Of a stretch of 64,000 bases of DNA, positions 7,201-33,400 are shown one piece after another (the stretch's first letter is position 1; the number at the start of each line of letters is the position of its first letter). A model generated the notes under the pieces. The model worked only from the letters and a program-made list of their open reading frames with translations, had not been told where the DNA came from and ran no database searches. Source of the stretch: Anadara kagoshimensis (lineage: Eukaryota > Mollusca > Bivalvia > Arcoida > Arcidae); contig CM037867.1 of the NCBI GenBank assembly GCA_021292105.1, forward strand, positions 11,852,721-11,916,720, read 5' to 3'. Position numbers and translations under genes: made by a program.

Positions 7201-10200
7201 TGTATGCGTATCCGCGATTATCATAAGATATGTCTGTAGAAAGGAAAGTGTTGGCATATGAGGATTTTACATTGCTAAAATGACAATGTTTACACTGGAA
7301 GTGATGTCCTTGGTAATGTTTTACGTCATATGCACAACAGAGTTAGCCATTTGCCTGGTTTTTCAACATGTTAAATCCCCATTAAGCACCAACGTTTTGC
7401 TCTGTGCAGGAATATTCTAGGCTATTCGCAGATGCGCATGTAGATTTTCTGTTACAACTAGGTACAAGTAAGTGAATATTATCAATTCTTATTCAGAATT
7501 ATTTGGTTTTCTACAGAAATAATGTGTTATCACTGTTGCAAACAGACTGGCTTTTACAGTAGGCTTACAGTAGTGATCTTATAAGATTGAGATAGACTGA
7601 AATACTAATTTTTATTTTCATAGGTGGAATTTACAAACTTTTACAGTGGAAGATCATCCGAATTGCGGATACGATTTCGTCGACATTTGAATGGAGGATA
7701 TCCATCTTCACCCTCCATTGGTAAAAAATGTGTGGTCAACTTTACCGAGCCATTCTTATCGCAGAGTAATCAGCTGAGGGTTATATTAAATCTATTATAC
7801 TATCCATGAACAAGGCTTTAGGCTGATATACACATTTGAATCTGAAGGTATGTGATATTTCGTCAAGTTTGACCATAGCCGTTTGACTTTATATGAATAT
7901 TCAATTGGATATATACATTTTGTAATGAAGGGGCTATATAAAGTTGATTTAAATGGATAGATGATAGTATTACTGGGTACCAGGTGTGTATGGTTATGAA
8001 ACATTCTGTCTTGCCTAAATCACACAGTTTATTCACCCAATCTAATATTTGAATTAAGGTCAAAAGGTCAGGTCAAACCGATGCATTATACTTTGTCTTT
8101 TTTCTTTTGTTTAAAAGAACACTTGCTACTGTCAGGGGAATCACTGTGTTTTTGAGAAATTTTTGCAAAATTTTTGTTGAAAATTTAAAGATTAAAATTC
8201 ACTTACTATAAATGTATTTATTTTCAAGGTGTATTAATTTTCGCTTATTTTGCAGTTGTTTGTTTTGTGCGAAAATTAATAACGAGCGAAAATTATATTA
8301 TGGTTATTGTGTTATAGTGCAAATTTGAAAAACGTGAAAATTGAACTACACAGATATGTCAAAATTCATATACCTTGAAATAAATATGCACAAAATTTTA
8401 AGATAGGTAAAGTTAGCTACTAGTAAACTGGCTACTAGTAGCTGGCTACTTGTAGAAGAAAAGTTAGCTACTAGTAGCCAGTACTTGTGGAAGAAAAGTA
8501 GCTACTAGTAGCCAGTTACTTGTTAGAAAAGCGTTGATTACTTGAAAAAATATCAATATTTACTACACATAGCAACCTACTAACGAATTAAATTTTATGG
8601 ATCAAAACTTCCGCAAAACTACGAACAATTTCTTGTACCACGAATGTAGTCCCGATATTTTTTGAATGTAAATAACATTCCAGACGAGTAGCTGGGTATT
8701 TATATTAAGATATTCAAAATTCAAGCATATCAGACGAAGTATATTCAATTCTGCATCCATTGATACCAAATATTCTAACATTCAATCTTCAATATGCACA
8801 GATACGCTTCCACAAAGGAGGGGGGGGGGGGGGGAGTGTAAGGGTAGGTTCTAATGCAATTTACATGGTTTTTCACATTCAGGACGAGTAGCTGGGTATT
8901 TATTTTTAAGATATTCAAAATTCAAGCATAAATGACGAAGTATTATTCAATTCTGCATCCATTGATACCAAATATTCTAACATCAAGCTTCAATACGCAA
9001 GATACGCTTCCACAAACGGGAAGAGGGGATGCAAAAACGGGTAGGTTCAAGTGTAATTCCATGATTTTTCACATTCAGGACGAGTAGCTGGGTATTTATA
9101 TTAAGATATTCAAAATTCAAGCATATCATGATGAAGTATATTCAATTCTGCATCCATTGAACCAATATTCAAACATCAAGCTTCAATACGCTCAAATACG
9201 CTTCCACAAGGAGGGGGAGTGTACGGGTAGGTTCTAATGCAATTTACATGGTTTTTCAAATTCAGGACGAGTAGCTGGGTATTTTTTTAAGATATTCAAA
9301 ATTCAAGCATATCATGACGAAGTATATTCAATTCTGCATCCATTGATACTAAATTCTAACATTCAAGCTTCAATACGCCACAGATACGCTTCCACAAAGG
9401 AGGGGGGGGAGTTGTACGGGTAGGTTCTAATGCAATTTACATGGTTTTTCACATTTCAGGACGAGTAGCTGGGTATTTATTTTAGATATTCAAAATTCAA
9501 GCATATCATGACGAAGTATATTCAATTCTGCATCCATTGATACCAAATATTCTAACATTCAAGCTTCAATACGCACAGATACGCTTCCACAAACGGGAAG
9601 AGGGGATGCAAAAACGGTAGGTTCAAGTGTAATTTCCATGATTTTTCACATTCAGGACGAGTAGCTGGGTATTTATATTTAAGATATTCAAAATTCAAGC
9701 ATATCATGATGAAGTATATTCAATTCTGCATCCATTGATACCAAATATTCAAACATTCAAGCTTCAATACGCTCAAATACGCTTCCACAAAGGAGGGGGG
9801 GGGGGAAGTGTACGGGTAGGTTCTAATGCAATTTACATGGTTTTTCACATTCAGGACGAGTAGCTGGGTATTTATTTTTAAGATATTCAAAATTCAAGCA
9901 TATCATGACGAAGTATATTCAATTCTGCATCCATTGATACCAAATATTCTAACATTCAATCTTCAATACGCACAGATACGCTTCCACAAAGGAGGGGGGG
10001 GGAGTGTACGGGTAGGTTCTAATGCAATTTACATGGTTTTTCACATTCAGGACGAGTAGCTGGGTATTTATTTTAAGATATTCAAAATTCAAGCATATCA
10101 TGATGAAGTATATTCAATTCTGCATCCATTGATACCAAATATTCTAACATTCAAGCTTCAATACGCACAGATACGCTTCCACAAACGAGAAGAGGGGATG

Positions 10201-13200
10201 CAAAAACGGGTAGGTTCAAGTGTAATTTCCATGATTTTTCACATTCAGGACGAGTAGCTGGGTATTTATATTTAAGATATTCAAAATTCAAGCATATCAT
10301 GATGAAGTATATTCAATTCTGCATCCATTGATACCAAATATTCAAACATTCAAGCTTCAATACGCTCAAATACGCTTCCACAAAGGAGGGGGGGAGTGTA
10401 CGGGTAGGTTCTAATGCAATTTACATGGTTTTTCACATTCAGGACGAGTAGCTGGGTATTTATTTTTAAGATATTCAAAATTCAAGCATATCATGACGAA
10501 GTATATTCAATTCTGCATCCATTGATACTAAATATTTTAACATTCAAGCTTCAATACGCACAGATACGCTTCCACAAAGGAGGGGGGGGGGTGTACGGGT
10601 AGGTTCTAATGCAATTTACATGGTTTTTCACATTCAGGACGAGTAGCTGGGTATTTATTTTTAAGATATTCAAAATTCAAGCATATCATGACGAAGTATA
10701 TTCAATTCTGCATCCATTGATACCAAATATTCTAACATTCAAGCTTCAATACGCACAGATACGCTTCCACAAACGGGAAGAGGGGATGCAAAAACGGGTA
10801 GGTTCAAGTGTAATTTCCATGATTTTTCACATTCAGGACGAGTAGCTGGGTATTTATATTTAAGATATTCAAAATTCAAGCATATCATGATGAAGTATAT
10901 TCAATTCTGCATCCATTGATACCAAATATTCAAACATTCAAGCTTCAATACGCTCAAATACGCTTCCACAAAGGAGGGGGGGGGAGTGTACGGGTAGGTT
11001 CTAATGCAATTTACATGGTTTTTCACATTCAGGACGAGTAGCTGGGTATTTATTTTTAAGATATTCAAAATTCAAGCATATCATGACGAAGTATATTTAA
11101 TTCTGCATCCATTGATACCAAATATTCTAACATTCAAGCTTCAATACGCACAGATACGCTTCCACAAAGGAGGGAGGGGGAGTGTACGGGTAGGTTCTAA
11201 TGCAATTTACATGGTTTTTCACATTCAGGACGAGTAGCTGGGTATTTATTTTCAAGATATTCAAAATTCAAGCATATCATGACGAAGTATATTCAATTCT
11301 GCATCCATTGATACCAAATATTCTAACATTCAAGCTTCAATAGGCACAGATACGCTTCCACAAACGGGAAGAGGGGATGCAAAAACGGGTAGGTTCAAGT
11401 GTAATTTCCATGATTTTTCACATTCAGGACGAGTAGCTGGGTATTTATATTTAAGATATTCAAAATTCAAGCATATCATGATGAAGTATATTCAATTCTG
11501 CATCCATTGATACCAAATATTCAAACATTCAAGCTTCAATACGCTCAAATACGCTTCCACAAAGGAGGGGGGGAGTGTACGGGTAGGTTCTAATGCAATT
11601 TACATGGTTTTTCACATTCAGGACGAGTAGCTGGGTATTTTATTTTTAAGATATTCAAAATTCAAGCATATCATGATGAAGTATATTCAATTCTGCATCC
11701 ATTGATACCAAATATTCAAACATTCAAGCTTCAATACGCTCAAATACGCTTCCACAAAGGAGGGGGGAGTGTACGGGTAGGTTCTAATGCAATTTATATG
11801 GTTTTTCACATTCAGGACGAGTAGCTGGGTATTTATATTTAAGATATTCAAACTTCAAGCATATCATGATGAAGTATATTCAATTCTGCATCCATTGATA
11901 CCAAATATTCAAACATTAAAGCTTCAATACGCTCAAATACGCTTCCACAAAGGAGGTGGGAGTGTACGGGTAGGTTCTAAATACCCAGCTACTCGTCCTG
12001 AATGTAAAAAATAATAGAAATTGCATTAAAACCTACCCATACACTCTCCCCCCCTCCTTTGTAGAAGCGTATTTGAACGTATTGAGCTTGAATGTTTGCA
12101 TATTTGGTATCAATGGATGCAGAAATGAATATACTTCATCATGATATGCTTGAAGTTTGAATATCTTAAATATAAATACCCAGCTACTCGTCCTGAATGT
12201 GAAAAACCATGTAAATTGCATTAGAACCTACCCGTACACTCCCCCCCCTCCTTTGTGGAAGCGTATTTGAGCGTATTGAAGCTTGAATGTTTGAATGTTT
12301 TATCAATGGATGCTGAATTGAATATACTTCATCATGATATGCTTGAAGTTTGAATATCTTAAATAAATACCCAGCTACTCGTCCTGAATGTGAAAAACCA
12401 TATAAATTGCATTAGAACCTACCCGTACACCCCCCCTCCTTTGTGGAAGCGTATTTGAGCGTATTGAAGCTTGAATGTTTGAATATTTGGTATCAATGGA
12501 TGCAGAATTGAATATACTTCATCATGATATGCTTGAATTTTGAATATCTTAAATATAAATACCCAGCTACTCGTCCTGAATGTGAAAAATCATGGAAATT
12601 ACACTTGAACCTACCCGTTTTTGCATCCCCTCGTCCCGTTTGTGGAAGCGTATCTGTGCGTATTGAAGCTTGAATGTTTGATTATTTGGTATCAATGGAT
12701 GCAGAATTGAATATACTTCATTATGATATGCTTGAATTTTAATATCTTAAAAATAAATACCCAGCTACTCGTCCTGAATGTGAAAAACCATGTAAATTGC
12801 ATTAGAACCTACCCGTACACTCCCCCCCCCTCCTTTGTGGAAGCGTATTTGAGCGTATTGAAGCTTGAATGTTTGAATATTTGGTATCAATGGATGCAGA
12901 ATTGAATATACTTCATCATGATATGCTTGAATTTTGAATATCTTAAATATAAATACCCAGCTACTCGTCCTGAATGTGAAAAATCATGGAAATTACACTT
13001 GAACCTACCCGTTTTTGCATCCCCTCGTCCCGTTGTGGAAGCGTATCTGTGCGTATTGAAGCTTGAATGTTTGATTATTTGGTATCAATGGATGCAGAAT
13101 TGAATATACTTCATTATGATATGCTTGAATTTTAAATATCTTAAAATAAATACCCAGCTACTCGTCCTGAATGTGAAAAACCATGTAAATTGCATTAGAA

Positions 13201-15358
13201 CCTACCCGTACACTCCCCCCCCCCTCCTTTGTGGAAGCGTATTTGAGCGTATTGAAGCTTGAATGTTTGAATATATGGTATCAATGGATGCAGAATTGAA
13301 TATACTTCATCATGATATGCTTGAATTTTGAATATCTTAAATATAAATACCCAGCTACTCGTCCTGAATGTGAAAATCATGGAAATTACACTTGAACCTA
13401 CCCGTTTTGCATCCCCTCGTCCCGTTTGTGGAAGCGTATCAGTGCGTATTGAAGCTTGAATGTTTGATTATTTGGTATCAATGGATGCAGAATTGAATAT
13501 ACTTCATTATGATATGCTTGAATTTTAAATCTTAAAAATAAATACCCAGCTACTCGTCCTGAATGTGAAAAACCATGTAAATTGCATTAGAACCTACCCG
13601 TACACCCCCCCTCCTTTGTGGAAGCGTATTTGAGCGTATTGAAGCTTGAATGTTTGAATATTTGGTATCAATGGATGCAGAATTGAATATACTTCATCAT
13701 GATATGCTTGAATTTTGAATATCTTAAATATAAATACCCAGCTACTCGTCCTGAATGTGAAAAATCATGGAAATTACACTTGAACCTACCCGTTTTTGCA
13801 TCCCCTCGTCCCGTTTGTGGAAGCGTATCTGTGCGTATTGAAGCTTGAATGTTTGATTATTTGGTATCAATGGATGCAGAATTGAATATACTTCATTATG
13901 ATATGCTTGAATTTTAAATATCTTAAAAATAAATACCCAGCTACTCGTCCTGAATGTGAAAAACCATGTAAATTGCATTAGAACCTACCCGTACACTCCC
14001 CCCCCCCTTTGTGGAAGCGTATTTGAGCGTATTGAAGCTTGAATGTTTGAATATTTGGTATCAATGATGCAGAATTGAATATACTTCATTATGATATGCT
14101 TGAATTTTAAATATCTAAAAATAAATACCCAGCTACTCGTCCTGAATGTGAAAAACCATGTAATTGCATTAGAACCTACCCGTACACCCCCCCTCCTTTG
14201 TGGAAGCGTATTTGAGCGTATTGAAGCTTGAATGTTTGATTATTTGGTATCAATGGATGCAGAATTGAATATACTTCATTATGATATGCTTGAATTTTAA
14301 ATATCTTAAAAATAAATACCCAGCTACTCGTCCTGAATGTGAAAAACCATGTAAATTGCATTAGAACCTACCCGTACACCCCCCTCCTTTGTGGAAGCGT
14401 ATTTGAGCGTATTGAAGCTTGAATGTTTGAATTATTTGGTATCAATGGATGCAGAATTGAATATACTTCATTATGATATGCTTGAATTTTAAATATCTTA
14501 AAAATAAATACCCAGCTACTCGTCCTGAATGTGAAAACCATGTAAATTGCATTAGAACCTACCCTACACCCCCCCCCCTCCTTTGTGGAAGCGTATTTGA
14601 GCGTATTGAAGCTTGAATGTTTGAATATTTGGTATCAATGAATGCAGAATTGAATATACTTCATCATGATATGCTTGAATTTTGAATATCTTAAATATAA
14701 ATACCCAGCTACTCGTCCTGAATGTGAAAAATCATGGAAATTACACTTGAACCTACCCGTTTTTGCATCCCCTCGTCCCGTTTGTGGAAGCGTATCTGTG
14801 CGTATTGAAGCTTGAATGTTTGATTATTTGGTATCAATGGATGCAGAATTGAATATACTTCATATGATATGCTTGAATTTTAAATATCTTAAAAATAAAT
14901 ACCCAGCTACTCGTCCTGAATGTGAAAAACCATGTAAAATTGCATTAGAACCTACCCGTACACTCCCCCCCCCCTCCTTTGTGGAAGCGTATTTGAGCGT
15001 ATTGAAGCTTGAATGTTTGAATATTTTGGTATCAATGGATGCAGAATTGAATATACTTCATCATGATACGCTTGAATTTTGAATATCTTAAATATAAATA
15101 CCCAGCTACTCGTCCTGAATGTGAAAAATCATGGAAATTACACTTGAACCTACCCGTTTTTGCATCCCTCGTCCGTTTGTGGAAGCGTATCTGTGCGTAT
15201 TGAAGCTTGAATGTTTGATTATTTGGTATCAATGGATGCAGAATTGAATATACTTCATTATGATATGCTTGAATTTTAAATATCTTAAAAATAAATACCC
15301 AGCTACTCGTCCTGAATGTGAAAAACCATGTAAAATGCATTAGAACCTACCCGTACAC

Positions 15359-15400
<42 letters not shown>

Positions 15401-18400
15401 TCTTTTGTGGAAGCGTATTTGAGCGTATTGAAGCTTGAATGTTTGAATATTTGGTATCAATGGATGCAGAATTGAATATACTTCATCATGATATGCTTGA
15501 ATTTTGAATATCTTAAATATAAATACCCAGCTACTCGTCCTGAATGTGAAAAATCATGGAAATTACACTTGAACCTACCCGTTTTTTGCATCCCTCGTCC
15601 CGTTTGTGGAAGCGTATCTGTGCGTATTAAAGCTTGAATGTTTGATTATTTGTATCAATGGATGCAGAATTGAATATACTTCATTATGATATGCTTGAAT
15701 TTTAAATATCTTAAAAATAAATACCCAGCTACACGTCCTGAATGTGAAAAACCATGTAAATTGCATTAGAACCTACCCGTACACTCTCCCCCTCCTTTGT
15801 GGAAGCGTATTTGAGCGTATTGAAGCTTGAATGTTTGAATATTTGGTATCAATGGATGCAGATTGAATATACTTCATCATGATATGCTTGAATTTTGAAT
15901 ATCTTAAATATAATACCCAGCTACTCGTCCTGAATGTGAAAATCATGGAAATTACACTTGAACCTACCCGTTTTTGTATCCCCTCGTCCTGTTTGTGGAG
16001 CGTACTGTGCGTATTGAAGCTTGAATGTTTGATTATTTGGTATCAATGGATGCAGAATTGAATATACTTCATTATGATATGCTTGAATTTGAATATCTTA
16101 AATATAATACCCAGCTACTCGTCCTGAATGTGAAAAATCATGGAAATTACACTTGAACCTACCCGTTTTGCATCCCCTCGTCCCGTTTGTGGAAGCGTAT
16201 CTGTGCGTATTGAAGCTTGAATGTTTGATTATTTGGTATCAATGGATGCAGAATTGAATATACTTCATTATGATATGCTTGAATTTTAAATATCTTAAAA
16301 ATAATACCCAGCTACTCGTCCTGAATGTGAAAAACCATGTAAATTGCATTAGAACCTACCCGTACACTCCCCCCCTCCTTTGTGGAAGCGTATTGAGCGT
16401 ATTGAAGCTTGAATGTTTGAATATTTGGTATCAATGGATGCAGAATTGAATATACTTCATCATGATATGCTTGAATTTTGAATATCTTAAATATAAATAC
16501 CCAGCTACTCGTCCTGAATGTGAAAAATCATGGAAATTACACTTGACCTACCCGTTTTTGCATCCCCTCGTCCCGTTTTGTGGAAGCGTATCTGTGCGTA
16601 TTGAAGCTTGAATGTTTGATTATTTGGTATCAATGGATGCAGAATTGAATATACTTCATTATGATATGCTTGAATTTTAAATATCTTAAAAATAAATACC
16701 CAGCTACTCGTCCTGAATGTGAAAAACCATGTAAATTGCATTAGAAACCTACCCGTACACTCCCCCCCCTTCCTTTGTGGAAGCGTATTTGAGCGTATTG
16801 AAGCTTGAATGTTTGAATATTTGTATCAATGGTGCATGAAATGAATATACTTCATCATGATATGCTGAATTTTGAATATCTTAAATATAAATACCCAGCT
16901 ACTCGTCCTGAATGTGAAAATCATGGAAATTACACTTGAACCTACCCGTTTTTTGCATCCCCCTCGTCCCGTTTGTGGAAGCGTATCTGTATGTATTGAA
17001 GCTTGAATGTTTGATTATTTGGTATCAATGGATGCAGAATTGAATATACTTCATTATGATATGCTTGAATTTTAAATATCTTAAAAATAAATACCCAGCT
17101 ACTCGTCCTGAATGTGAAAAACCATGTAAATTGCATTAGAACCTACCCGTACACTCCCCCCCCCTCCTTTGTGGAAGCGTATTTGAGCGTATTGAAGCTT
17201 GAATGTTTGATATATGGTATCAATGGATGCAGAATTGATATACTTCATCATGATATGCTTGAATTTTGAATATCTTAAATATAAATACCCAGCTACTCGT
17301 CCTGAATGTGAAAATCATGGAAATTACACTTGAACCTACCCGTTTTTGCATCCCCTCGTCCCGTTTGTGGAAGCGTATCTGTGCGTATTGAAGCTTGAAT
17401 GTTTGATTATTTGGTATCAATGGATGCAGAATTGAATATACTTCATTATGATATGCTTGAATTTTAATATCTTAAAAATAATACCCAGCTACTCGTCCTG
17501 AATGTGAAAAAACCATGTAAATTGCATTAGAACCTACCCGTACACCCCCCCCCCTCTTTTGTGGAAGCGTATTTGAGCGTATTGAAGCTTGAATGTTTGA
17601 ATATTTGGTATCAATGGATGCAGAATTGAATATACTTCATCATGATATGCTTGAATTTTGAATATCTTAAATATGAATACCCAGCTACTCGTCCTGAATG
17701 TGAAAAATCATGGAAATTACACTTGAACCTACCCGTTTTTGCATCCCCTCGTCGTTTGTGGAAGCGTATCTGTGCGTATTGAAGCTTGAATGTTTGATTA
17801 TTTGGTATCAATGGATGCAGAATTGAATATACTTCATTATGATATGCTTGAATTTTAAATATCTTAAAAATAAATACCCAGCTACTCGTCCTGAATGTGA
17901 AAAACCATGTAAATTGCATTAGAACCTACCCGTACACTCCCCCCCCCCTCCTTTGTGGAAGCGTATTTGAGCGTATTGAAGCTTGAATGTTTGAATATTT
18001 GGTATCAATGAATGCAGAATTGAATATACTTTCATTATGATATGCTTGAATTTTAAATATCTTAAAATAAATACCCAGCTACTCGTCCTGAATGTGAAAA
18101 ACCATGTAAATTGCATTAGAACCTACCCGTACACCCCCCCCCCTCCTTTGTGGAAGCGTATTTGAGCGTATTGAAGCTTGAATGTTTGATTATTTGGTAT
18201 CAATGGATGCGAATTGAATATACTTCATTATGATATGCTTGAATTTTAAATATCTTAAAAATAAATACCCAGCTACTCGTCCTGAATGGAAAAACCATGT
18301 AAATTGCATTAGAACCTACCCGTACACCCCCCCCCCCTCCTTTGTGGAAGCGTATTTGAGCGTATTGAAGCTTGAATGTTTGAATATTTGGTATCATGGT

Positions 18401-21400
18401 GCAGAATTGAATATACTTCATCATGATATGCTTGAATTTTGAATATCTTAAATATAAATACCCAGCTACTCGTCCTGAATGTGAAAAATCATGGAAATTA
18501 CACTTGAACCTACCCGTTTTTGCATCCCCTCGTCCCGTTTGTGGAAGCGTATCTGTGCGTATTGAAGCTTGAATGTTTGATTATTTGGTATCAATGGATG
18601 CAGATTGAATATACTTCATTATGATATGCTTGAATTTTAAATATCTTAAAAATAAATACCCAGCTACTCGTCCTGAATGTGAAAAACCATGTAAATTGCA
18701 TTAGAACCTACCCGTACACCCCCCCCCCCTTTTGTGAAGCGTATTTGAGCGTATTGAAGCTTGAATGTTTGAATATTTGGTATCAATGGATGCAGAATTG
18801 AATATACTTCATCATGATATGCTTGAATTTTGAATATCTTAAATATGAATACCCAGCTACTCGTCCTGAATGTGAAAAATCATGGAAATTACACTTGAAC
18901 CTACCCGTTTTTTTGCATCCCCTCGTCCCGTTTGTGGAAGCGTATCTGTGCGTATTAAGCTTGAATGTTTGATTATTTGGTATCAATGGATGCAGAATTG
19001 AATATACTTCATTATGATATGCTTGAATTTTAAATATCTTAAAAATAAATACCCAGCTACCGTCCTGAATGTGAAAAAATGTAAATTGCATTAGAACCTA
19101 CCCGTACACTCTCCCCCTCCTTTGTGGAAGCGTATTTGAGCGTATTGAAGCTTGAATGTTTGAATATTTGGTATCAATGGATGCAGAATTGAATATACTT
19201 CATCATGATATGCTTGAATTTTGAATATCTTAAATATAAATACCCAGCTACTCGTCCTGAATGTGAAAAATCATGGAAATTACACTTGAACCTACCCGTT
19301 TTGTATCCCCTCGTCCTGTTTGTGGAAGCGTATCTGTGCGTATTGAAGCTTGAATGTTTGATTATTTGGTATCAATGGATGCAGAATTGAATATACTTCA
19401 TTATGATATGCTTGAATTTTGAATATCTTAAATATAAATACCCAGCTACTCGTCCTGAATGTGAAAAATCATGGAAATTACACTTGAACCTACCCGTTTT
19501 TGCATCCCCCGTCCCGTTTGTGGAAGCGTATCTGTGCGTATTGAAGCTTGAATGTTTGATTATTTGGTATCAATGGATGCAGAATTGAATATACTTCATT
19601 ATGATATGCTTGAATTTTAATATCTTAAAAATAAATACCCAGCTACTCGTCCTGAATGTGAAAAACCATGTAAATTGCATTAGAACCTACCCGTACACTC
19701 CCCCCCTCCTTTGTGGAAGCGTATTTGAGCGTATTGAAGCTTGAATGTTTGAATATTTGGTATCAATGGATGCAGAATTGAATATACTTCATCATGATAT
19801 GCTTGAATTTTGAATATCTTAAATATAAATACCCAGCTACTCGTCCTGAATGTGAAAAATCATGGAAATTACACTTGAACCTACCCGTTTTTGCATCCCC
19901 GTCCCGTTTGTGGAAGCGTATCTTGCGTATTGAAGCTTGAATGTTTGATTATTTGGTATCAATGGATGCAGAATTGAATATACTTCATTATGATATGCTT
20001 GAATTTTAAATATCTTAAAAATAAATACCCAGCTACTCGTCCTGAATGTGAAAAACCATGTAAATTGCATTAGAACCTACCCGTACACTCCCCCCCCCTT
20101 CCTTTGTGGAAGCGTATTTGAGCGTATTGAAGCTTGAATGTTTGAATATTTGGTATCAATGGATGCAGAATTGAATATACTTCATCATGATATGCTTGAA
20201 TTTTGAATATCTTAAATATAAATACCCAGCTACTCGTCCTGAATGTGAAAAATCATGGAAATTACTTGAACCTACCCGTTTTTGCATCCCCTCGTCCCGT
20301 TTGTGGAAGCGTATCTGTATGCGTTGAAGCTTGAATGTTTGATATTTGGTATCAATGGATGCAGAATTGAATATACTTCATTATGATATGCTTGAATTTT
20401 GAAATATCTTAAAAATAAATACCCAGCTACTCGTCCTGAATGTGAAAAACCATGTAAATTGCATTAGAACCTACCCGTACACTCCCCCCCCTCCTTTGTG
20501 GAAGCGTATTTGAGCGTATTGAAGCTTGAATGTTTGAATATATGGTATCAATGGATGCAGAATTGAATATACTTCATCATGATATGCTTGAATTTTGAAT
20601 ATCTTAAATATAAATACCCAGCTACTCGTCCTGAATGTGAAAAATCATGGAAATTACACTTGAACCTACCCGTTTTTTGCATCCCCTCGTCCCGTTTGTG
20701 GAAGCGTATCTGTGCGTATTGAAGCTTGAATGTTTGATTATTGGTATCAATGGATGCAGAATTGAATATACTTCATTATGATATGCTTGAATTTTGAAAT
20801 ATCTTAAAAATAAATACCCAGCTACTCGTCCTGAATGTGAAAAACCATGTAAATTGCATTAGAACCTACCCGTACACCCCCCCCCCCTCTTTGTGGAAGC
20901 GTATTTGAGCGTATTGAAGCTTGAATGTTTGAATATTTGGTATCAATGGATGCAGAATTGAATATACTTCATCATGATATGCTTGAATTTTGAATATCTT
21001 AAATATAAATACCCAGCTACTCGTCCTGAATGTGAAAAATCATGGAAATTACACTTGAACCTACCCGTTTTTGCATCCCTCGTCCCGTTTGTGGAAGCGT
21101 ATCTGTGCGTATTGAAGCTTGAATGTTTGATTATTTGGTATCAATGGATGCAGAATTGAATATACTTCATTATGATATGCTTGAATTTTAATATCTTAAA
21201 AATAAATACCCAGCTACTCGTCCTGAATGTGAAAAACCATGTAAATTGCATTAGAACCTACCCGTACACTCCCCCCCCCTCCTTTGTGGAAGCGTATTTG
21301 AGCGTATTGAAGCTTGAATGTTTGAATATTTGGTATCAATGATGCAGAATTGAATATACTTCATTTGATATGCTTGAATTTTAATATCTTAAAAATAAAT

Positions 21401-24400
21401 ACCCAGCTACTCGTCCTGAATGTGAAAAACCATGTAAATTGCATTAGAACCTACCCGTACACCCCCCCCCCTCCTTTGTGGAAGCGTATTTGAGCGTATT
21501 GAAGCTTGAATGTTTGATATTTGGTATCAATGGATGCAGAATTGAATATACTTCATTATGATATGCTTGAATTTTAATATCTTAAAAATAATACCCAGCT
21601 ACTCGTCCTGAATGTGAAAACCATGTAAATTGCATTAGAACCTACCCGTACACCCCCCCCCCTTTTGTGGAAGCGTATTTGAGCGTATTGAAGCTTGAAT
21701 GTTTGAATATTTGGTATCAATGGATGCAGAATTGAATATACTTCATCATGATATGCTTGAATTTTGAATATCTTAAATATAATACCCAGCTACTCGTCCT
21801 GAATGTGAAAAATCATGGAAATTACACTTGAACCTACCCGTTTTCATCCCCCGTCCCTTTGTGGAAGCGTATCTGAGCGTATTGAAGCTTGAATGTTTGA
21901 TTATTGGTATCAATGGATGCAGAATTGAATATACTTCATTATGATATGCTTGAATTTTAATATCTTAAAAATAAATACCCAGCTACTCGTCCTGAATGTG
22001 AAAAACCATGTAAATTGCATTAGAACCTACCCGTACACCCCCCCCCCCCTTTTGGAAGCGTATTTGAGCGTATTGAAGCTTGAATGTTTGAATATTTGGT
22101 ATCAATGGATGCAGAATTGAATATACTTCATCATGATATGCTTGAATTTTGAATATCTTAAATATAAATACCCAGCTACTCGTCCTGAATGTGAAAAATC
22201 ATGGAAATTACACTTGAACCTACCCGTTTTTTGCATCCCCTCGTCCCGTTTGTGGAAGCGTATCTGTGCGTATTGAAGCTTGAATGTTTGATTATTTGGT
22301 ATCAATGGATGCAGAATTGAATATACTTCATTATGATATGCTTGAATTTTAATATCTTAAAATAAATACCCAGCTACTCGTCCTGAATGTGAAAAACCAT
22401 GTAAATTGCATTAGAACCTACCCGTACACTCCCCCCCCCTCCTTTGTGGAAGCGTATTTGAGCGTATTGAAGCTTGAATGTTTGAATATTTGGTATCAAT
22501 GGATGCAGAATTGAATATACTTCATTATGATATGCTTGAATTTTAAAATCTTAAAAATAAATACCCAGCTACTCGTCCTGAATGTGAAAAACCATGTAAA
22601 TTGCATTAGAACCTACCCGTACACCCCCCCCCCCCCTCCTTTGTGGAAGCGTATTTGAGCGTATTGAAGCTTGAATGTTTGATTATTTGGTATCAATGGA
22701 TGCAGAATTGAATATACTTCATTATGATATGCTTGAATTTTAATATCTTAAAATAAATACCCAGCTACTCGTCCTGAATGTGAAAAACCATGTAAATTGC
22801 ATTAGAACCTACCCGTACATCCCCCCCCCCCTCCTTTGTGGAAGCGTATTTGAGCGTATTGAAGCTTGAATGTTTGAATATTTGGTATCAATGGATGCAG
22901 AATTGAATATACTTCATCATGATATGCTTGAATTTTGAATATCTTAAATATAAATACCAGCTACTACTCGTCCTGAATGTGAAAAATCATGGAAATTACA
23001 CTTGAACCTACCCGTTTTTGCATTCCCTCGTCCGTTTGTGGAAGCGTATCTGTGCGTATTGAAGCTTGAATGTTTGATTATTTGGTATCAATGGATGCAG
23101 AATTGAATATACTTCATTATGATATGCTTGAATTTTAAATATCTTAAAAATAAATACCCAGCTACTCGTCCTGAATGTGAAAAACCATGTAAATTGCATT
23201 AGAACCTACCCGTACACCCCCCCCCCCTCCTTTGTGGAAGCGTATTTGAGCGTATTGAAGCTTGAATGTTTGAATATTTGGTATCAATGATGCAGAATTG
23301 AATATACTTCATCATGATATGCTTGAATTTTGAATATCTTAAATATAAATACCCAGCTACTCGTCCTGAATGTGAAAAATCATGGAAATTACACTTGAAC
23401 CTACCCGTTTTTTGCATCCCCTCGTCCCGTTTGTGGAAGCGTATCTGTGCGTATTGAAGCTTGAATGTTTGATTATTTGGTATCAATGGATGCAGAATTG
23501 AATATACTTCATTATGATATGCTTGAATTTTAAATCTCTTAAAAATAAATACCCAGCTACTCGTCCTGAATGTGAAAAACCATGTAAATTGCATTAGAAC
23601 CTACCCGTACACTCCCCCCCCTTCCTTTGTGGAAGCGTATTTGAGCGTATTGAAGCTTGAATGTTTGAATATTTGGTATCAATGGATGCAGAATTGAATA
23701 TACTTCATCATGATATGCTTGAATTTTGAATATCTTAAATATAAATACCCAGCTACTCGTCCTGAATGTGAAAAATCATGGAAATTACACTTGAACCTAC
23801 CCGTTTTTGCATCCCCTCGTCCCGTTTGTGGAAGCGTATCTGTATGTATTGAAGCTTGAATGTTTGATTATTTGGTATCAATGGATGCAGAATTGAATAT
23901 ACTTCATTATGATATGCTTGAATTTTAAATATCTTAAAAATAAATACCCAGCTACTCGTCCTGAATGTGAAAAACCATGTAAATTGCATTAGAACCTACC
24001 CGTACACTCCCCCCCCCTCCTTTGTGGAAGCGTATTTGAGCGTATTGAAGCTTGAATGTTTGAATATATGGTATCAATGGATGCAGAATTGAATATACTT
24101 CATCATGATATGCTTGAATTTTGAATATCTTAAATATAAATACCCAGCTACTCGTCCTGAATGTGAAAATCATGGAAATTACACTTGAACCTACCCGTTT
24201 TTGCATCCCCTCGTCCCGTTTGTGGAAGCGTATCTGTGCGTATTGAAGCTTGAATGTTTGATTATTTGGTATCAATGGATGCAGAATTGAATATACTTCA
24301 TTATGATATGCTTGAATTTTAAATATCTTAAAATAAATACCCAGCTACTCGTCCTGAATGTGAAAAACCATGTAAATTGCATTAGAACCTACCCGTACAC

Positions 24401-27400
24401 CCCCCCCCCTCTTTGTGGAAGCGTATTTGAGCGTATTGAAGCTTGAATGTTTGAATATTTGGTATCAATGGATGCAGAATTGAATATACTTCATCATGAT
24501 ATGCTTGAATTTTGAATATCTTAATATGAATACCCAGCTACTCGTCCTGAATGTGAAAAATCATGGAAATTACACTTGAACCTACCCGTTTTTGCATCCC
24601 CTCGTCCCGTTTGTGGAAGCGTATCTGTGCGTATTGAAGCTTGAATGTTTGATTATTTGGTATCAATGGATGCAGAATTGAATATACTTCATTATGATAT
24701 GCTTGAATTTTAAATATCTTAAAAATAAATACCCAGCTACTCGTCCTGAATGTGAAAAACCATGTAAATTGCATTAGAACCTACCCGTACACTCCCCCCC
24801 CCCTCCTTTGTGGAAGCGTATTTGAGCGTATTGAAGCTTGAATGTTTGAATATTTGGTATCAATGAATGCAGAATTGAATATACTTCATTATGATATGCT
24901 TGAATTTTAAATATCTTAAAAATAAATACCCAGCTACTCGTCCTGAATGTGAAAAACCATGTAAATTGCATTAGAACCTACCCGTACACCCCCCCCCCCT
25001 CCTTTGTGGAAGCGTATTTAGCGTATTGAAGCTTGAATGTTTGATTATTTGGTATCAATGGATGCAGAATTGAATATACTTCATTATGATATGCTTGAAT
25101 TTTAAATATCTTAAAAATAAATACCCAGCTACTCGTCCTGAATGTGAAAAACCATGTAAATTGCATTAGAACCTACCCGTACACCCCCCCCCCCTCCTTT
25201 GTGGAAGCGTATTTGAGCGTATTGAAGCTTGAATGTTTGAATATTTGGTATCAATGGATGCAGAATTGAATATACTTCATCATGATATGCTTGAATTTTG
25301 AATATCTTAAATATAAATACCCAGCTACTCGTCCTGAATGTGAAAATCATGGAAATTACACTTGAACCTACCCGTTTTTGCATCCCCTCGTCCCGTTTGT
25401 GGAAGCGTATCTGTGCGTATTGAAGCTTGAATGTTTGATTACTTGGTATCAATGGATGCAGAATTGAATATACTTCATTATGATATGCTTGAATTTTAAA
25501 TATCTTAAAAATAAATACCCAGCTACTCGTCCTGAATGTGAAAAACCATGTAAATTGCATTAGAACCTACCCGTACACCCCCCCCCCCCTCTTTTGTGGA
25601 AGCGTATTTGAGCGTATTGAAGCTTGAATGTTTGAATATTTGGTATCAATGGATGCAGAATTGAATATACTTCATCATGATATGCTTGAATTTTGAATAT
25701 CTTAAATATGAATACCCAGCTACTCGTCCTGAATGTGAAAAATCATGGAAATTACACTTGAACCTACCCGTTTTTGCATCCCCTCGTCCCGTTTGTGGAA
25801 GCGTATCTGTGCGTATTGAAGCTTGAATGTTTGATTATTTGGTATCAATGGATGCAGAATTGAATATACTTCATTATGATATGCTTGAATTTTAAATATC
25901 TTAAAAATAAATACCCAGCTACTCGTCCTGAATGTGAAAAACCATGTAAATTGCATTAGAACCTACCCGTACACTCCCCCCCCCTCCTTTGTGGAAGCGT
26001 ATTTGAGCGTATTGAAGCTTGAATGTTTGAATATTTGGTATCAATGAATGCAGAATTGAATATACTTCATTATGATATGCTTGAATTTTAAATATCTTAA
26101 AATAAATACCCAGCTACTCGTCCTGAATGTGAAAAACCATGTAAATTGCATTAGAACCTACCCGTACACCCCCCCCCCCCTCCTTTGTGGAAGCGTATTT
26201 GAGCGTATTGAAGCTTGAATGTTTGATTATTTGGTATCAATGATGCAGAATTGAATATACTTCATTATGATATGCTTGAATTTTAAATATCTTAAAAATA
26301 AATACCCAGCTACTCGTCCTGAATGTGAAAAACCATGTAAATTGCATTAGAACCTACCCGTACACCCCCCCCCCCCCCTCCTTTGTGGAAGCGTATTTGA
26401 GCGTATTGAAGCTTGAATGTTTGAATATTTGGTATCAATGGATGCAGAATTGAATATACTTCATCATGATATGCTTGAATTTTGAATATCTTAAATATAA
26501 ATACCCAGCTACTCGTCCTGAATGTGAAAAATCATGGAAATTACACTTGAACCTACCCGTTTTTGCATTCCCTCGTCCCGTTTGTGGAAGCGTATCTGTG
26601 CGTATTGAAGCTTGAATGTTTGATTATTTGGTATCAATGGATGCAGAATTGAATATACTTCATTATGATATGCTTGAATTTTAAATATCTTAAAAATAAA
26701 TACCCAGCTACTCGTCCTGAATGTGAAAAACCATGTAAATTGCATTAGAACCTACCCGTACACTCCCCCCCCCCCTCCTTTGTGGAAGCGTATTTGAGCG
26801 TATTGAAGCTTGAATGTTTGAATATTTGGTATCAATGAATGCAGAATTGAATATACTTCATCATGATATGCTTGAATTTTGAATATCTTAAATATAAATA
26901 CCCAGCTACTCGTCCTGAATGTGAAAAATCATGGAAATTACACTTGAACCTACCCGTTTTTGCATCCCCTCGTCCCGTTTGTGGAAGCGTATCTGTGCGT
27001 ATTGAAGCTTGAATGTTTGATTATTTGGTATCAATGGATGCAGAATTGAATATACTTCATTATGATATGCTTGAATTTTAAATATCTTAAAATAAATACC
27101 CAGCTACTCGTCCTGAATGTGAAAAAACCATGTAAATTGCATTAGAACCTACCCGTACACTCCCCCCCCTCCTTTGTGGAAGCGTATTTGAGCGTATTGA
27201 AGCTTGAATGTTTGAATATTTGGTATCAATGGATGCAGAATTGAATATACTTCATCATGATACGCTTGAATTTTGAATATCTTAAATATAAATACCCAGC
27301 TACTCGTCCTGAATGTGAAAAATCATGGAAATTACACTTGAACCTACCCGTTTTTGCATCCCCTCGTCCCGTTTGTGGAAGCGTATCTGTGCGTATTGAA

Positions 27401-30400
27401 GCTTGAATGTTTGATTATTTGGTATCAATGGATGCAGAATTGAATATACTTCATTATGATATGCTTGAATTTTAAATATCTTAAAAATAAATACCCAGCT
27501 ACTCGTCCTGAATGTGAAAAACCTGTAAATTGCATTAGAACCTACCCGTACACTCCCCCCCCCGTCTTTTGTGGAAGCGTATTTGAGCGTATTGAAGCTT
27601 GAATGTTTGAATATTTGGTATCAATGGATGCAGAATTGAATATACTTCATCATGATATGCTTGAATTTTGAATATCTTAAATATAAATACCCAGCTACTC
27701 GTCCTGAATGTGAAAAATCATGGAAATTACACTTGAACCTACCCGTTTTTGCATCCCCTCGTCCCGTTTGTGGAAGCGTATCTGTGCGTATTAAAGCTTG
27801 AATGTTTGATTATTTGGTATCAATGGATGCAGAATTGAATATACTTCATTATGATATGCTTGAATTTTAAATATCTTAAAAATAAATACCCAGCTACTCG
27901 TCCTGAATGTGAAAAACCATGTAAATTGCATTAGAACCTACCCGTACACTCTCCCCCCTCCTTTGTGGAAGCGTATTTGAGCGTATTGAAGCTTGAATGT
28001 TTGAATATTTGGTATCAATGGATGCAGAATTGAATATACTTCATCATGATATGCTTGAATTTTGAATATCTTAAATATAAATACCCAGCTACTCGTCCTG
28101 AATGTGAAAAATCATGGAAATTACACTTGAACCTACCCGTTTTTGTATCCCCTCGTCCTGTTTGTGGTAGCGTATCTGTGCGTATTGAAGCTTGAATGTT
28201 TGATTATTTGGTATCAATGGATGCAGAATTGAATATACTTCATTATGATATGCTTGAATTTTAAATATCTTAAAAATAAATACCCAGCTACTCGTCCTGA
28301 ATGTGAAAAACCATGTAAATTGCATTAGAACCTACCCGTACACTCCCCCCCCCCTCCTTTGTGGAAGCGTATTTGAGCGTATTGAAGCTTGAATGTTTGA
28401 ATATTTGGTATCAATGGATGCAGAATTGAATATACTTTATCATGATATGCTTGAATTTTGAATATCTTAAATATAAATACCCAGCTACTCGTCCTGAATG
28501 TGAAAAATCATGGAAATTACACTTGAACCTACCCGTTTTTGCATCCCCTCGTCCCGTTTGTGGAAGCGTATCTGTGCGTATTGAAGCTTGAATGTTTGAT
28601 TATTTGGTATCAATGGATGCAGAATTGAATATACTTCATTATGATATGCTTGAATTTTAAATATCTTAAAAATAAATACCCAGCTACTCGTCCTGAATGT
28701 GAAAAACCATGTAAATTGCATTAGAACCTACCCGTACACTCCCCCCCCCCCCCTCCTTTGTGGAAGCGTATTTGAGCGTATTGAAGCTTGAATGTTTGAA
28801 TATTTGGTATCAATGGATGCAGAATTGAATATACTTCATCATGATATGCTTGAATTTTGAATATCTTAAATATAAATACCCAGCTACTCGTCCTGAATGT
28901 GAAAAATCATGGAAATTACACTTGAACCTACCCGTTTTTGCATCCCCTCGTCCCGTTTGTGGAAGCGTATCTGTGCGTATTGAAGCTTGAATGTTTGATT
29001 ATTTGGTATCAATGGATGCAGAATTGAATATACTTCATTATGATATGCTTGAATTTTAAATATCTTAAAAATAAATACCCAGCTACTCGTCCTGAATGTG
29101 AAAAACCATGTAAATTGCATTAGAACCTACCCGTACACTCCCCCCCCCCTTCCTTTGTGGAAGCGTATTTGAGCGTATTGAAGCTTGAATGTTTGAATAT
29201 TTGGTATCAATGGATGCAGAATTGAATATACTTCATCATGATATGCTTGAATTTTGAATATCTTAAATATAAATACCCAGCTACTCGTCCTGAATGTGAA
29301 AAATCATGGAAATTACACTTGAACCTACCTGTTTTTGCATCCCCTCGTCCCGTTTGTGGAAGCGTATCTGTGCGTATTGAAGCTTGAATGTTTGATTATT
29401 TGGTATCAATGGATGCAGAATTGAATATACTTCATTATGATATGCTTGAATTTTAAATATCTTAAAAATAAATACCCAGCTACTCGTCCTGAATGTGAAA
29501 ATCATGTAAATTGCATTAGAACCTACCCGTACACTCCCCCCCTCCTTTGTGGAAGCGTATTTGAGCGTATTGAAGCTTGAATGTTTGAATATTTGGTATC
29601 AATGGATGCAGAATTGAATATACTTCATCATGATATGCTTGAATTTTGAATATCTTAAATATAAATACCCAGCTACTCGTCCTGAATGTGAAAAATCATG
29701 GAAATTACATTTGAACCTACCCGTTTTTGCATCCCCTCGTCCCGTTTGTGGAAGCGTATCTGTGCGTATTGAAGCTTGAATGTTTGATTATTTGGTATCA
29801 ATGGATGCAGAATTGAATATACTTCATTATGATATGCTTGAATTTTAAATATCTTAAAAATAAATACCCAGCTACTCGTCCTGAATGTGAAAAACCATGT
29901 AAATTGAATTAGAACCTACCCGTACACTCCCCCCCCCTCCTTTGTGGAAGCGTATTTGAGCGTATTGAAGCTTGAATGTTTGAATATTTGGTATCAATGG
30001 ATGCAGAATTGAATATACTTCATCATGATATGCTTGAATTTTGAATATCTTAAATATAAATACCCAGCTACTCGTCCTGAATGTGAAAAATCATGGAAAT
30101 TACACTTGAACCTACCCGTTTTTGCATCCCCTCGTCCCGTTTGTGGAAGCGTATCTGTGCGTATTGAAGCTTGAATGTTTGATTATTTGGTATCAATGGA
30201 TGCAGAATTGAATATACTTCATTATGATATGCTTGAATTTTAAATATCTTAAAAATAAATACCCAGCTACTCGTCCTGAATGTGAAAAACCATGTAAATT
30301 GCATTAGAACCTACCCGTACACTCCCCCCCCCCCCTCCTTTGTGGAAGCGTATTTGAGTGTATTGAAGCTTGAATGTTTGAATATTTGGTATCAATGGAT

Positions 30401-33400
30401 GCAGAATTGAATATACTTCATCATGATATGCTTGAATTTTGAATATCTTAAATATAAATACCCAGCTACTCGTCCTGAATGTGAAAAATCATGGAAATTA
30501 CACTTGAACCTACCCGTTTTTGCATCCCCTCGTCCCGTTTGTGGAAGCGTATCTGTGCGTATTGAAGCTTGAATGTTTGATTATTTGGTATCAATGGATG
30601 CAGAATTGAATATACTTCATTATGATATGCTTGAATTTTAAATATCTTAAAAATAAATACCCAGCTACTCGTCCTGAATGTGAAAAACCATGTAAATTGC
30701 AATAGAACCTACCCGTACACTCCCCCCCTCCTTTGTGGAAGCGTATTTGAGCGTATTGAAGCTTGAATGTTTGAATATTTGGTATCAATGGATGCAGAAT
30801 TGAATATACTTCATCATGATATGCTTGAATTTTGAATATCTTAAATATAAATACCCAGCTACTCGTCCTGAATGTGAAAAATCATGGAAATTACACTTGA
30901 ACCTACCCGTTTTTGCATCCCCTCGTCCCGTTTGTGGAAGCGTATCTGTGCGTATTGAAGCTTGAATGTTTGATTATTTGGTATCAATGGATGCAGAATT
31001 GAATATACTTCATTATGATATGCTTGAATTTTAAATATCTTAAAAATAAATACCCAGCTACTCGTCCTGAATGTGAAAAACCATGTAAATTGCATTAGAA
31101 CCTACCCGTACACTCCCCCCCCCCCCCCCCTTCCTTTGTGGAAGCGTATTTGAGCGTATTGAAGCTTGAATGTTTGAATATTTGGTATCAATGGATGCAG
31201 AATTGAATATACTTCATCATGATATGCTTGAATTTTGAATATCTTAAATATAAATACCCAGCTACTCGTCCTGAATGTGAAAAATCATGGAAATTACACT
31301 TGAACCTACCCGTTTTTGCATCCCCTCGTCCCGTTTGTGGAAGCGTATCTGTGCGTATTGAAGCTTGAATGTTTGATTATTTGGTATCAATGGATGCAGA
31401 ATTGAATATACTTCATTATGATATGCTTGAATTTTAAATATCTTAAAAATAAATACCCAGCTACTCGTCCTGAATGTGAAAAACCATGTAAATTGCATTA
31501 GAACCTACCCGTACACTCCCCCCCCCCTCCTTTGTGGAAGCGTATTTGAGCGTATTGAAGCTTGAATGTTAGAATATTTGGTATCAATGGATGCAGAATT
31601 GAATATACTTCATCATGATATGCTTGAATTTTGAATATCTTAAATATAAATACCCAGCTACTCGTCTGGAATGTTATTTACATTCAAAAATATCGGGACT
31701 ACATTCGTGTACAAGAAATTGTTCGTAGTTTTGCGGAAGTTTTGATCCATAAAATCTAATTCGTTAGTAGGTAGTTATGCGTAGTAAATAGTTGATATTT
31801 TTTTCAAAATAATCAACTACTTTAAATTTTCTAACAAGTAACTGGCTACTAGTAGCTAATTTTTCTTCCACAAGTAACTGGCTACTAGTAGCTAACTTTT
31901 CTTCTACAAGTAGCCAGCTACTAGTAGCCAGTTACTAGTAGCTAACTTTACCTATCTAAAATTTTATGTGTTTACAGTTTTTGAGCATAAGTATAACTGA
32001 AAATTGCTATGGACATTCTCAATTACCATAAAATATTCCTGTAGAAATAAGGATGTTACTGCTACCTGAATTTTACATCTAGAAAATCGCTAAAGGTTTA
32101 CAGTCTAGAAGTAATAACTTTGTTGACGTTGTTATGTTGTTTTACTCCTTGCAGAGGATTAATTACAGATGGGCAAAGCTATTTTCTTTTACACAGCTTG
32201 GTAAATTTTTAACTGCCATGTAAATATTATGTTTATAGTAAATTTTAATTTTAAAAAGAATCCATTTGATTTAAAGTGTTTATCTATAAAAAATAATGGA
32301 GTGCCTTTTTCTAATTATTTAAGAAAAACTTCAACATGTTCAACTAATGCTGCATTTAACAGTAAAAACTCCATGAAAATAGACCAAGAAATAAATTTTC
32401 TGTTTTTTTTTTTTTTTTTAAATATGTGGTTTAATTTTATAAAAAAATAAAGAAGGATTTTACTAAGTGTCTGAATACTATTTGCACATCTCTGTATTTT
32501 AAAATTTTGGATTTATTATTTTATACAGGATGTGGCGGAATGTACCACAGTAATACTGGTCATATCTACAGTCCAAACTGGCCCAGAAGTTATCCTCACA
32601 ACGTACAGTGTATATGGGACATCAATGTACAAGTCGGTTACCATGTGACCTTGACTTTTAACCCTCCTTTTGACCTTGAAGCTCATGATACATGTGACTT
32701 TGATTATGTTGAGGTCAGTGGCTTTGTTACATTTTAAAAAAAAAATGCCTTCTGCCTTTTAAATTGGGAAAATTTGAAGTTCTGAAATACAGCAAACTGC
32801 AAAATGACATGCTTGCAATAGCTTAGAATCCTGGTTAAAAACTTTTATAAGATGTTATATTGTGACAATATCTAACATTTTGTGGTAAAGGACAACTAGA
32901 TAAAATTTGCTAGTATATCATTGTTGTTTTTAGAATTTTACTGGTCAAATTGGGAAATTCTAGTCACTTTTCCCAGAGTAAACTGCCTGTATTTGGTAGT
33001 AATTTTATGCAAACAAAATTACTGGAGGTACTACGGTAATATATATTCAATTTTAATATCTCTGCTCTAAATTGATGGTAAGTATTGGGACTTCCATTGT
33101 ATCCTACATTCAAATTTTAATTTCTACTAAAAATCCTTAAAACAACAAAAAAAATCTTTTTGAATATGTCTGAAATTTTTTTTTTCAAAACTTTTGCACA
33201 GAATTTAATTGGTTGGGATACAAAACAATATCCCACCAATGTTAAAAATAACTTTTAACAGTGGAATTTCCCAGTGGACTGAAACCACTACAAAAAATTC
33301 TATGAATTCTGTGTGTTGAATTTGTGTATTTTCAGAATCAACATGTATTTCATATAATTAGAAAACATCTGCAATTTCTTAGAACGTCATGTAAAATGAG

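What the first reader, a model, noticed from the sequence alone, without database searches (positions are those of the whole stretch)
8392..31966. A 23.6-kb foldback-type transposable element made almost entirely of satellite, with intact ends and 9-bp target duplication
Seen: ~300-bp terminal inverted repeats, perfect AAAATTTTA at both flanks, inverted arms of a ~197-bp tandem repeat, no coding capacity. Known: foldback elements have inverted repeats built of tandem subrepeats, and Drosophila FB makes 9-bp duplications. At 23.6 kb with some 117 monomers this is very large for the class. It may be a route by which satellite arrays are moved as transposons, or by which transposons seed satellites. 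The duplication is AT-rich and nearly palindromic, so on its own it is weaker than it looks.
Basis: partly seen in the sequence, partly recalled or inferred. Interest (0 to 1): 0.85.

Follow-up and report, generated by a model that had tools for sequence, protein, structure and literature searches.

The report
Satellite-armed foldback transposon in an intron
A 23.6-kb stretch of repeated DNA in an animal gene is a mobile element: one member of a large family whose two mirror-image arms are built of satellite repeats that travel with it and then grow where it lands.

Summary
Window 8401-31957 has 93%-identical terminal inverted repeats, 17 and 101 satellite monomers in opposite orientation, and AAAATTTTA on both sides. 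That duplication alone was ambiguous: its 8-bp core is a palindrome beside indel-rich sequence. The host genome settles it. The end sequence occurs at 618 places (up to 2 mismatches), and 34 of 45 independent paired copies (92 bp to 28.9 kb) have exact 8-10-bp duplications (26 of 9 bp); mismatched partners match in 0 of 1,980. It is a non-autonomous foldback family. Duplication length suggests Mutator-type mobilisation, but no transposase-bearing copy was found. Of the first 100 monomers listed, 91 lie in clusters next to an end. A 13.3-kb copy elsewhere has nearly the same two ends (1/295 and 0/299 substitutions) and the same arm-specific monomer types, so differentiated satellite arms moved with the element. 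But monomers cluster by copy and arm, so arrays then expand and homogenise in place. The window copy is not the longest: end pairs 24.3 and 28.9 kb apart have exact duplications (interior of the second not read). Closest precedent: Tetris of Drosophila virilis.

The parts
8392..8400 (+). left target-site duplication AAAATTTTA
   Evidence: a family feature in 34 of 45 paired copies
8401..8682 (+). left terminal inverted repeat: begins AGATAGGTAAAG, then ~36-bp subrepeats each with the 12-bp palindrome GCTACTAGTAGC (8431, 8467, 8501), then a ~150-bp unique part
8675..11977 (+). left satellite arm, 17 monomers of ~196-199 bp, three-monomer higher-order repeat (B'-A'-B)
11972..11984 (.). central junction where orientation flips (GGTTC-TAA-ATACCC, 3-bp microhomology)
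   Evidence: other copies have other junctions
11978..31674 (-). right satellite arm, 101 monomers, mainly two-monomer higher-order repeat (A-B, 395 bp)
31669..31957 (-). right terminal inverted repeat, palindromes at 31845, 31881, 31917
31958..31966 (+). right target-site duplication AAAATTTTA
7624..7806 (+). host-gene exon on the left side, recognised by eye as the C-terminal half of a CUB domain; it reads in two alternating frames, and Pfam finds nothing in the ORF
32435..32734 (+). ORF holding the next host-gene exon on the right side (N-terminal half of a CUB domain, Pfam E 6.1e-19), so the element lies in an intron

Best explanation
The stretch is one insertion of a non-autonomous foldback DNA transposon family. 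Shown: many dispersed copies, common ends, 8-10-bp target duplications (mode 9), and, in the satellite-bearing copies read, inverted arms made of a ~197-bp satellite. Shown: two copies at different sites share ends and differentiated arms, so satellite-bearing arms are part of what moves. Shown: within a copy each arm tends to form its own homogeneous array with its own higher-order repeat. Inferred: a Mutator-type transposase supplied in trans cuts and pastes the element by its AGATAGGTAAAG ends. Inferred: after landing, each arm expands, contracts and homogenises by unequal exchange or conversion between its own monomers, and the centre is repeatedly reworked by joins between inverted monomers. 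The window copy landed in an intron of a many-CUB-domain gene; its right arm now has 101 monomers.
For: End pattern at 305+313 places with up to 2 mismatches, reversed-pattern control 0. 45 independent scorable pairs: 34 exact duplications (26 of 9 bp, 7 of 10, 1 of 8); left flanks against other copies' right flanks give 0 of 1,980. Sister copy L021+L090 on contig C7: left ends differ by 1/295 (10 gap columns), right ends by 0/299 (2 gap columns), crosswise by 8 each; no flank homology; different duplication TGTCTTCTT. Its A-type monomers match the window's arm for arm at a diagnostic site (one of several linked columns): + arm G in 5/5 (window) and 10/10 (C7); - arm A in 42/42 (one further gap) and 17/17. 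636 monomers from 23 copies: nearest neighbour in the same copy 0.73 against 0.08 shuffled, same copy and arm 0.68; one + arm has 47 monomers 0.3% apart, one - arm has 42 monomers 1.2% apart but 6.2% from its partner arm. 91 of the first 100 exact monomers lie in clusters within 600 bp of an exact end. CUB exons lie on both sides on the same strand.
Against: Of 45 pairs, 6 have no duplication (L028, L033, L036, L024/L104, L113, L116/L117) and 5 are imperfect. No transposase was found with these ends: in 30 MULE loci (1.5 kb each side) the only match was a loose one in L052 pointing away, and of 76 MULE places the only one near the end positions compared (4.6 kb) lies outside that element. No empty site was shown. 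The left-end type shared by window and C7 copy also occurs in other copies, and both A-monomer types occur in other copies too; the sister claim rests on the right end and the arm-for-arm pairing, and conversion between copies could imitate part of it. Window and C7 copies have different central junctions. The size of the element when it moved is not known.
Confidence: 0.87

Rival explanations
1. Elements of near-present size (10-30 kb) transpose whole, and the arrays are mobile cargo; growth in place is minor.
For: Exact duplications flank end pairs 12.7, 13.3, 14.0, 16.8, 23.6, 24.3 and 28.9 kb apart (interiors of the 12.7-, 16.8- and 28.9-kb pairs not read). Sister copies share differentiated arms.
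Against: Arrays differ in length and higher-order pattern even between the two closest copies (17+101 against 23+42 monomers; trimer against dimer in the + arm). Monomers cluster by copy and arm. Duplications say nothing about size at insertion.
Confidence: 0.08
2. A pre-existing stand-alone satellite array was captured or inverted by an unrelated event, and the ends are incidental.
For: 7 of the 22 sampled monomer clusters have no exact end within 600 bp.
Against: Those 7 hold 9 of 100 sampled monomers, at most 2 each; the same end-to-satellite boundary recurs across copies.
Confidence: 0.02
3. Assembly artefact (palindromic read or collapsed array) makes an apparent single element.
For: Indel-rich stretches at the left end and mid-array, a 40-C run, N runs in arrays of some other copies.
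Against: The adjoining flanks are not inverted copies of each other; the arms differ in length and higher-order pattern; the junction is not a mirror point; CUB exons continue on both sides; short copies, two of the 92-bp ones included, show the same ends with duplications.
Confidence: 0.03

Closest known systems
Tetris, Drosophila virilis (PMC4079207; outline, sections 10, 11, 12, 14 and part 1 of 16 read)
   Same: Non-autonomous foldback; outer TIR domain plus ~220-bp tandem repeats inside the inverted repeats; 8-10-bp duplications; no transposase found; repeats make satellite-like arrays (up to 66 copies), and long arrays between two outer domains were seen by fiber-FISH; unequal exchange proposed. 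Repeats of two of its three complete copies group together in the tree.
   Different: Only three structurally complete Tetris copies, TIRs up to 1,735 bp, amplification in beta-heterochromatin, and the authors suggest larger arrays may have disrupted transposition. Here end pairs with exact duplications lie up to 28.9 kb apart, one copy sits in an intron, and arm-specific types are shared between insertions. [quoted passage not shown] here monomers cluster by copy and arm.
Tm1, root-knot nematodes (PMC3169594; abstract and passages read)
   Same: Composite TIRs with varying numbers of tandem units, 8-10-bp duplications in 45 of 53 elements (most commonly 9), MITE-like members, TIR pairs on average 93% identical.
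   Different: Units are ~14 bp, the elements described in the passages are about 1.1 and 2.6 kb, and one class encodes a Phantom/Mutator-like transposase.
Galileo, Drosophila mojavensis (PMC3573991; passages read)
   Same: Foldback-like TIRs with ~210-bp internal tandem repeats whose number differs between the two TIRs of one copy.
   Different: P superfamily with 7-bp duplications, up to three repeats per TIR, TIRs up to ~1.26 kb.
Helentron-borne satellites of the Pacific oyster (PMC7492417, PMC8268682; passages read)
   Same: Satellite-like repeats dispersed as part of a mobile element, with further change of array length in place.
   Different: Rolling-circle elements with a central array (longest 29.3 monomers in one survey), not inverted arms.

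Membership tests
Foldback-type elements (structural class) | long terminal inverted repeats containing tandem subrepeats of variable number | tested here: met
Foldback-type elements (structural class) | dispersed copies with target-site duplications | tested here: met
   618 end places; 34 of 45 scorable independent pairs exact, cross-control 0 of 1,980
Mutator superfamily (MULE) | target-site duplication of about 8-11 bp, mostly 9 (range recalled) | tested here: met
   26 of 34 exact duplications are 9 bp, 7 are 10, 1 is 8; not exclusive to Mutator
Mutator superfamily (MULE) | MULE transposase encoded by a copy with the same ends | tested here: inconclusive
   76 PF10551 matches; none of 30 fetched loci carries the end convincingly; about two thirds of the 618 end places were never listed
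P superfamily / Galileo | 7-bp (Galileo) or 8-bp (P, recalled) duplications | tested here: not met
   33 of 34 exact duplications are 9-10 bp; P-type transposase not searched
Helitron/Helentron | insertion without target-site duplication | tested here: not met
   duplications at 34 of 45 pairs
Tetris | sequence homology to Tetris TIR-FD / TIR-220 | not tested
   no Tetris sequence was at hand; only architecture compared

The most novel reading that the evidence does not exclude
Multi-kilobase satellite arrays are mobile cargo: the whole foldback, with arms that already have their own monomer types and higher-order repeats, is excised and reinserted at 10-kb scale, so a transposon both founds and disperses a satellite family in euchromatin.
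Probability: 0.25. Interest if true: 0.8.

Novelty: new variant of a known kind. Interest (0 to 1): 0.62.

Why it matters
How satellite arrays reach new chromosomal sites is an old question. Here most sampled satellite monomers lie beside transposon ends, many copies have target duplications that mark one insertion event, and two sister insertions give a before-and-after view of array turnover. With hundreds of sites from 92 bp to nearly 29 kb in one assembly, array growth rate, arm independence and the size limit of transposition become measurable. It also qualifies the suggestion made for Tetris that large arrays disrupt the element: here long copies keep both ends and their duplication.

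Tried and rejected
TIR-derived monomer: the best 20-mer shared by TIR and monomer is 16/20, reached by 23 of 200 dinucleotide shuffles, so no evidence that the satellite arose from the TIR as proposed for Tetris.

Empty site: the joined flanks of the 194-bp copy L031 gave no contiguous match among the 40 scored of 60 candidates. Instead about 35 places match one flank, mostly with the other flank some 190 bp further on: that copy rides in another repeat, which inflates the 618 ends. L031=L035=L043, L033=L034 and L036=L037 (same flanks) were therefore counted once each; L040 (N at its left flank) was not scored.

Second element family with the same 16-bp tip but another next base: 17 places, control 3. 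MULE linkage: see Membership tests; the 165 end positions compared were typed and leave out some partners of listed pairs. Viral-contig scans with the end and the monomer: 0 matches each. A CENP-B-box look in the A monomer (motif recalled, by eye) failed on spacing. Runs of up to 14 similar monomers between copies were not taken as shared order, because a dimer array matches any dimer array. A regex typing at one diagnostic site failed and was replaced by alignment columns. An earlier tally counted L011/L012 as exact; it is off by one base and is now imperfect, and mis-set the window's right flank; one search is the corrected count.
Full report
WHAT IS THERE. The window is animal DNA (CUB-domain exons, a LINE-like ORF; species not identified). 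The element runs from 8401 to 31957 (23,557 bp), with AAAATTTTA at 8392-8400 and 31958-31966. Both ends begin AGATAGGTAAAGTTAG, followed by ~36-bp subrepeats carrying the palindrome GCTACTAGTAGC three times per end, a ~150-bp unique part, and then satellite. The ends are 93% identical over 369 aligned columns; over the TIR they differ by 8 substitutions in 288 and 24 gap columns. About 97% of the element is satellite: 17 monomers in + and 101 in - orientation.

THE ARMS DIFFER. Monomers fall into A and B types. The right arm is mainly an A-B dimer (mean 4.8 substitutions at offset 2, 15.5 at offset 1); the left arm is a trimer (3.3 at offset 3, 12.5 at offset 1). Four left-arm B monomers have 0 substitutions to right-arm B monomers (poly-G tract left out); A types differ between arms. 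Of 26 rare variants, 8 occur in both arms; 3 of the 8 link monomers at the same end (one at the outer ends, which also occurs in one mid-array monomer, and two at the inner ends), the other 5 are scattered. This is modest support for an older symmetrical foldback from which the arms grew apart. The centre is a join with 3 bp of microhomology, not a mirror point. By eye, 14 copies with readable centres show 13 different joins, only L011 and L015 sharing one.

THE TARGET DUPLICATION. The 8-bp core of AAAATTTTA is a palindrome, and the left end lies in an indel-rich stretch (the first five left monomers lack 3-9 bases each against their type consensus; the neighbouring exon reads in two alternating frames). 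From the window alone an inverted reading was close to as good. The host genome (G000, 1.115 Gb) resolves it. The 25-base end occurs at 305+313 places with up to 2 mismatches, control 0. I scored 45 independent pairs, the window included. Exact abutting duplications: 34 (26 of 9 bp, 7 of 10, 1 of 8). Imperfect: 5 (L009/L010, L011/L012, L015, L081/L082, L102/L103). None: 6 (L028, L033, L036, L024/L104, L113, L116/L117). One further pair (L040) could not be scored. Matching each left flank to the other copies' right flanks gave 0 exact matches of 1,980. Of the 34, only the window's contains a palindromic 8-mer (all). The pairs are those visible in the first 100 places of one list, the 40 best TIR matches and two prefix lists, so they are not a random sample. 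Sizes run from 92 bp to 28.9 kb; pairs 24.3 and 28.9 kb apart exceed the window's. Of the 24.3-kb copy about 15.7 kb was read, all satellite beyond the end; of the 28.9-, 16.8- and 12.7-kb pairs only the ends were read.

SATELLITE AND TRANSPOSON. The monomer core occurs at 3,345 places with up to 2 mismatches, control 0. Of the first 100 exact places (contigs C1-C2), 91 lie in 15 of 22 clusters within 600 bp of an exact end; the 7 other clusters hold 1-2 monomers each. Large end-free arrays could still be missing from the sample or the assembly.

DO ARRAYS MOVE OR GROW IN PLACE? Both. The 13.3-kb copy on C7 (L021+L090, duplication TGTCTTCTT) is the closest relative found of the window copy: ends differ by 1/295 (left, 10 gap columns) and 0/299 (right, 2 gap columns) against 8 crosswise, with no flank homology. 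A-type monomers carry G at a diagnostic site in 5/5 (window) and 10/10 (C7) of + arms, and A in 42/42 and 17/17 of - arms (one window monomer has a gap there). The site is one of several linked columns. Both A types also occur in other copies, and the left-end type too, so it is the same pairing of ends and arms, not the types as such, that marks the two as sisters. On this reading an element with already differentiated arms was copied to two sites. Since then the window - arm has taken its own near-fixed variant, its + arm has become a trimer array, and array lengths have diverged (17+101 against 23+42). Across 636 monomers from 23 copies (27 of the 40 loci L009-L048 then held, plus the window; L020, L026, L034 and L040 held monomers but were left out) the nearest neighbour is in the same copy 73% of the time against 8% when shuffled; ties were averaged, and adjacent monomers are not independent. 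The L022 + arm has 47 monomers 0.3% apart; the L023 - arm has 42 monomers 1.2% apart yet 6.2% from its own + arm, as far as from other copies (6.0%). Not all copies show this: in C6, C17b + and L015, distances within an arm are about as large as between copies.

WHAT MOVES IT. Duplications of 8-10 bp with mode 9 fit the Mutator superfamily, as argued for Tetris and Tm1 (PMC4079207 sections read; PMC3169594 passages read). No transposase-bearing copy was found. 76 MULE-domain places exist; in 30 fetched loci the only match to the end is a loose one in L052 (up to 3 mismatches in 16, pointing away), and a tighter test finds none. The only MULE place within 5 kb of the 165 end positions compared lies outside an ordinary satellite-bearing copy. 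About two thirds of the end places were never listed, so an autonomous copy may exist.

PLACE IN THE GENOME. CUB half-domains lie on the + strand on both sides of the element: for example 2065-2370, 5567-5800, 32435-32734, 35053-35295. The element is thus inside an intron of a many-CUB gene (cubilin-like, by recall). This also argues that both ends belong to one locus.

COMPARISON. The architecture is that of Tetris, on a larger scale and with insertions that share differentiated arms. In the nine literature searches run I saw, in the listings and the parts read, no report of duplication-flanked foldback copies above 10 kb with satellite arms; most subscription papers are not held. FB of Drosophila and FARE of Arabidopsis I know only by recall and by mention in passages.

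Noticed in passing
window 2065-57638: The window appears to be one many-CUB-domain (cubilin-like) gene on the + strand: nine ORFs with a CUB match in Pfam and several more CUB-like stretches by eye.
   Followed up: partly
window 7624-7806: The CUB C-half exon left of the element reads in two alternating frames; either raw-read indels or gene decay. It resembles the indel-rich stretch at 8.4-9.5 kb.
   Followed up: partly
window 40105-44381: A LINE-like ORF (zf-RVT, 41527-42741, - strand) lies between two arrays of what looks like the same 145-bp tandem repeat (40105-40861 and 43012-44381).
   Followed up: no
window 15360-15399: A run of 40 C inside the right arm; the poly-C/G tract of B monomers varies in length throughout the arms.
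   Followed up: no
window 49586-49657: A tRNA-like match (Rfam RF00005, 32 bits against a cut-off of 29), perhaps a SINE.
   Followed up: no
L031, L035, L043 and about 35 places in G000: A 194-bp copy of this transposon seems to have been carried along inside another amplified repeat; the three copies read have the same flanks and the same 9-bp duplication.
   Followed up: partly
L022+L091 (C17:23170844 onward): A + arm of at least 78 monomers (0.3% apart among the first 47) with no centre or far end within about 15.7 kb; possibly one of the youngest expansions.
   Followed up: partly
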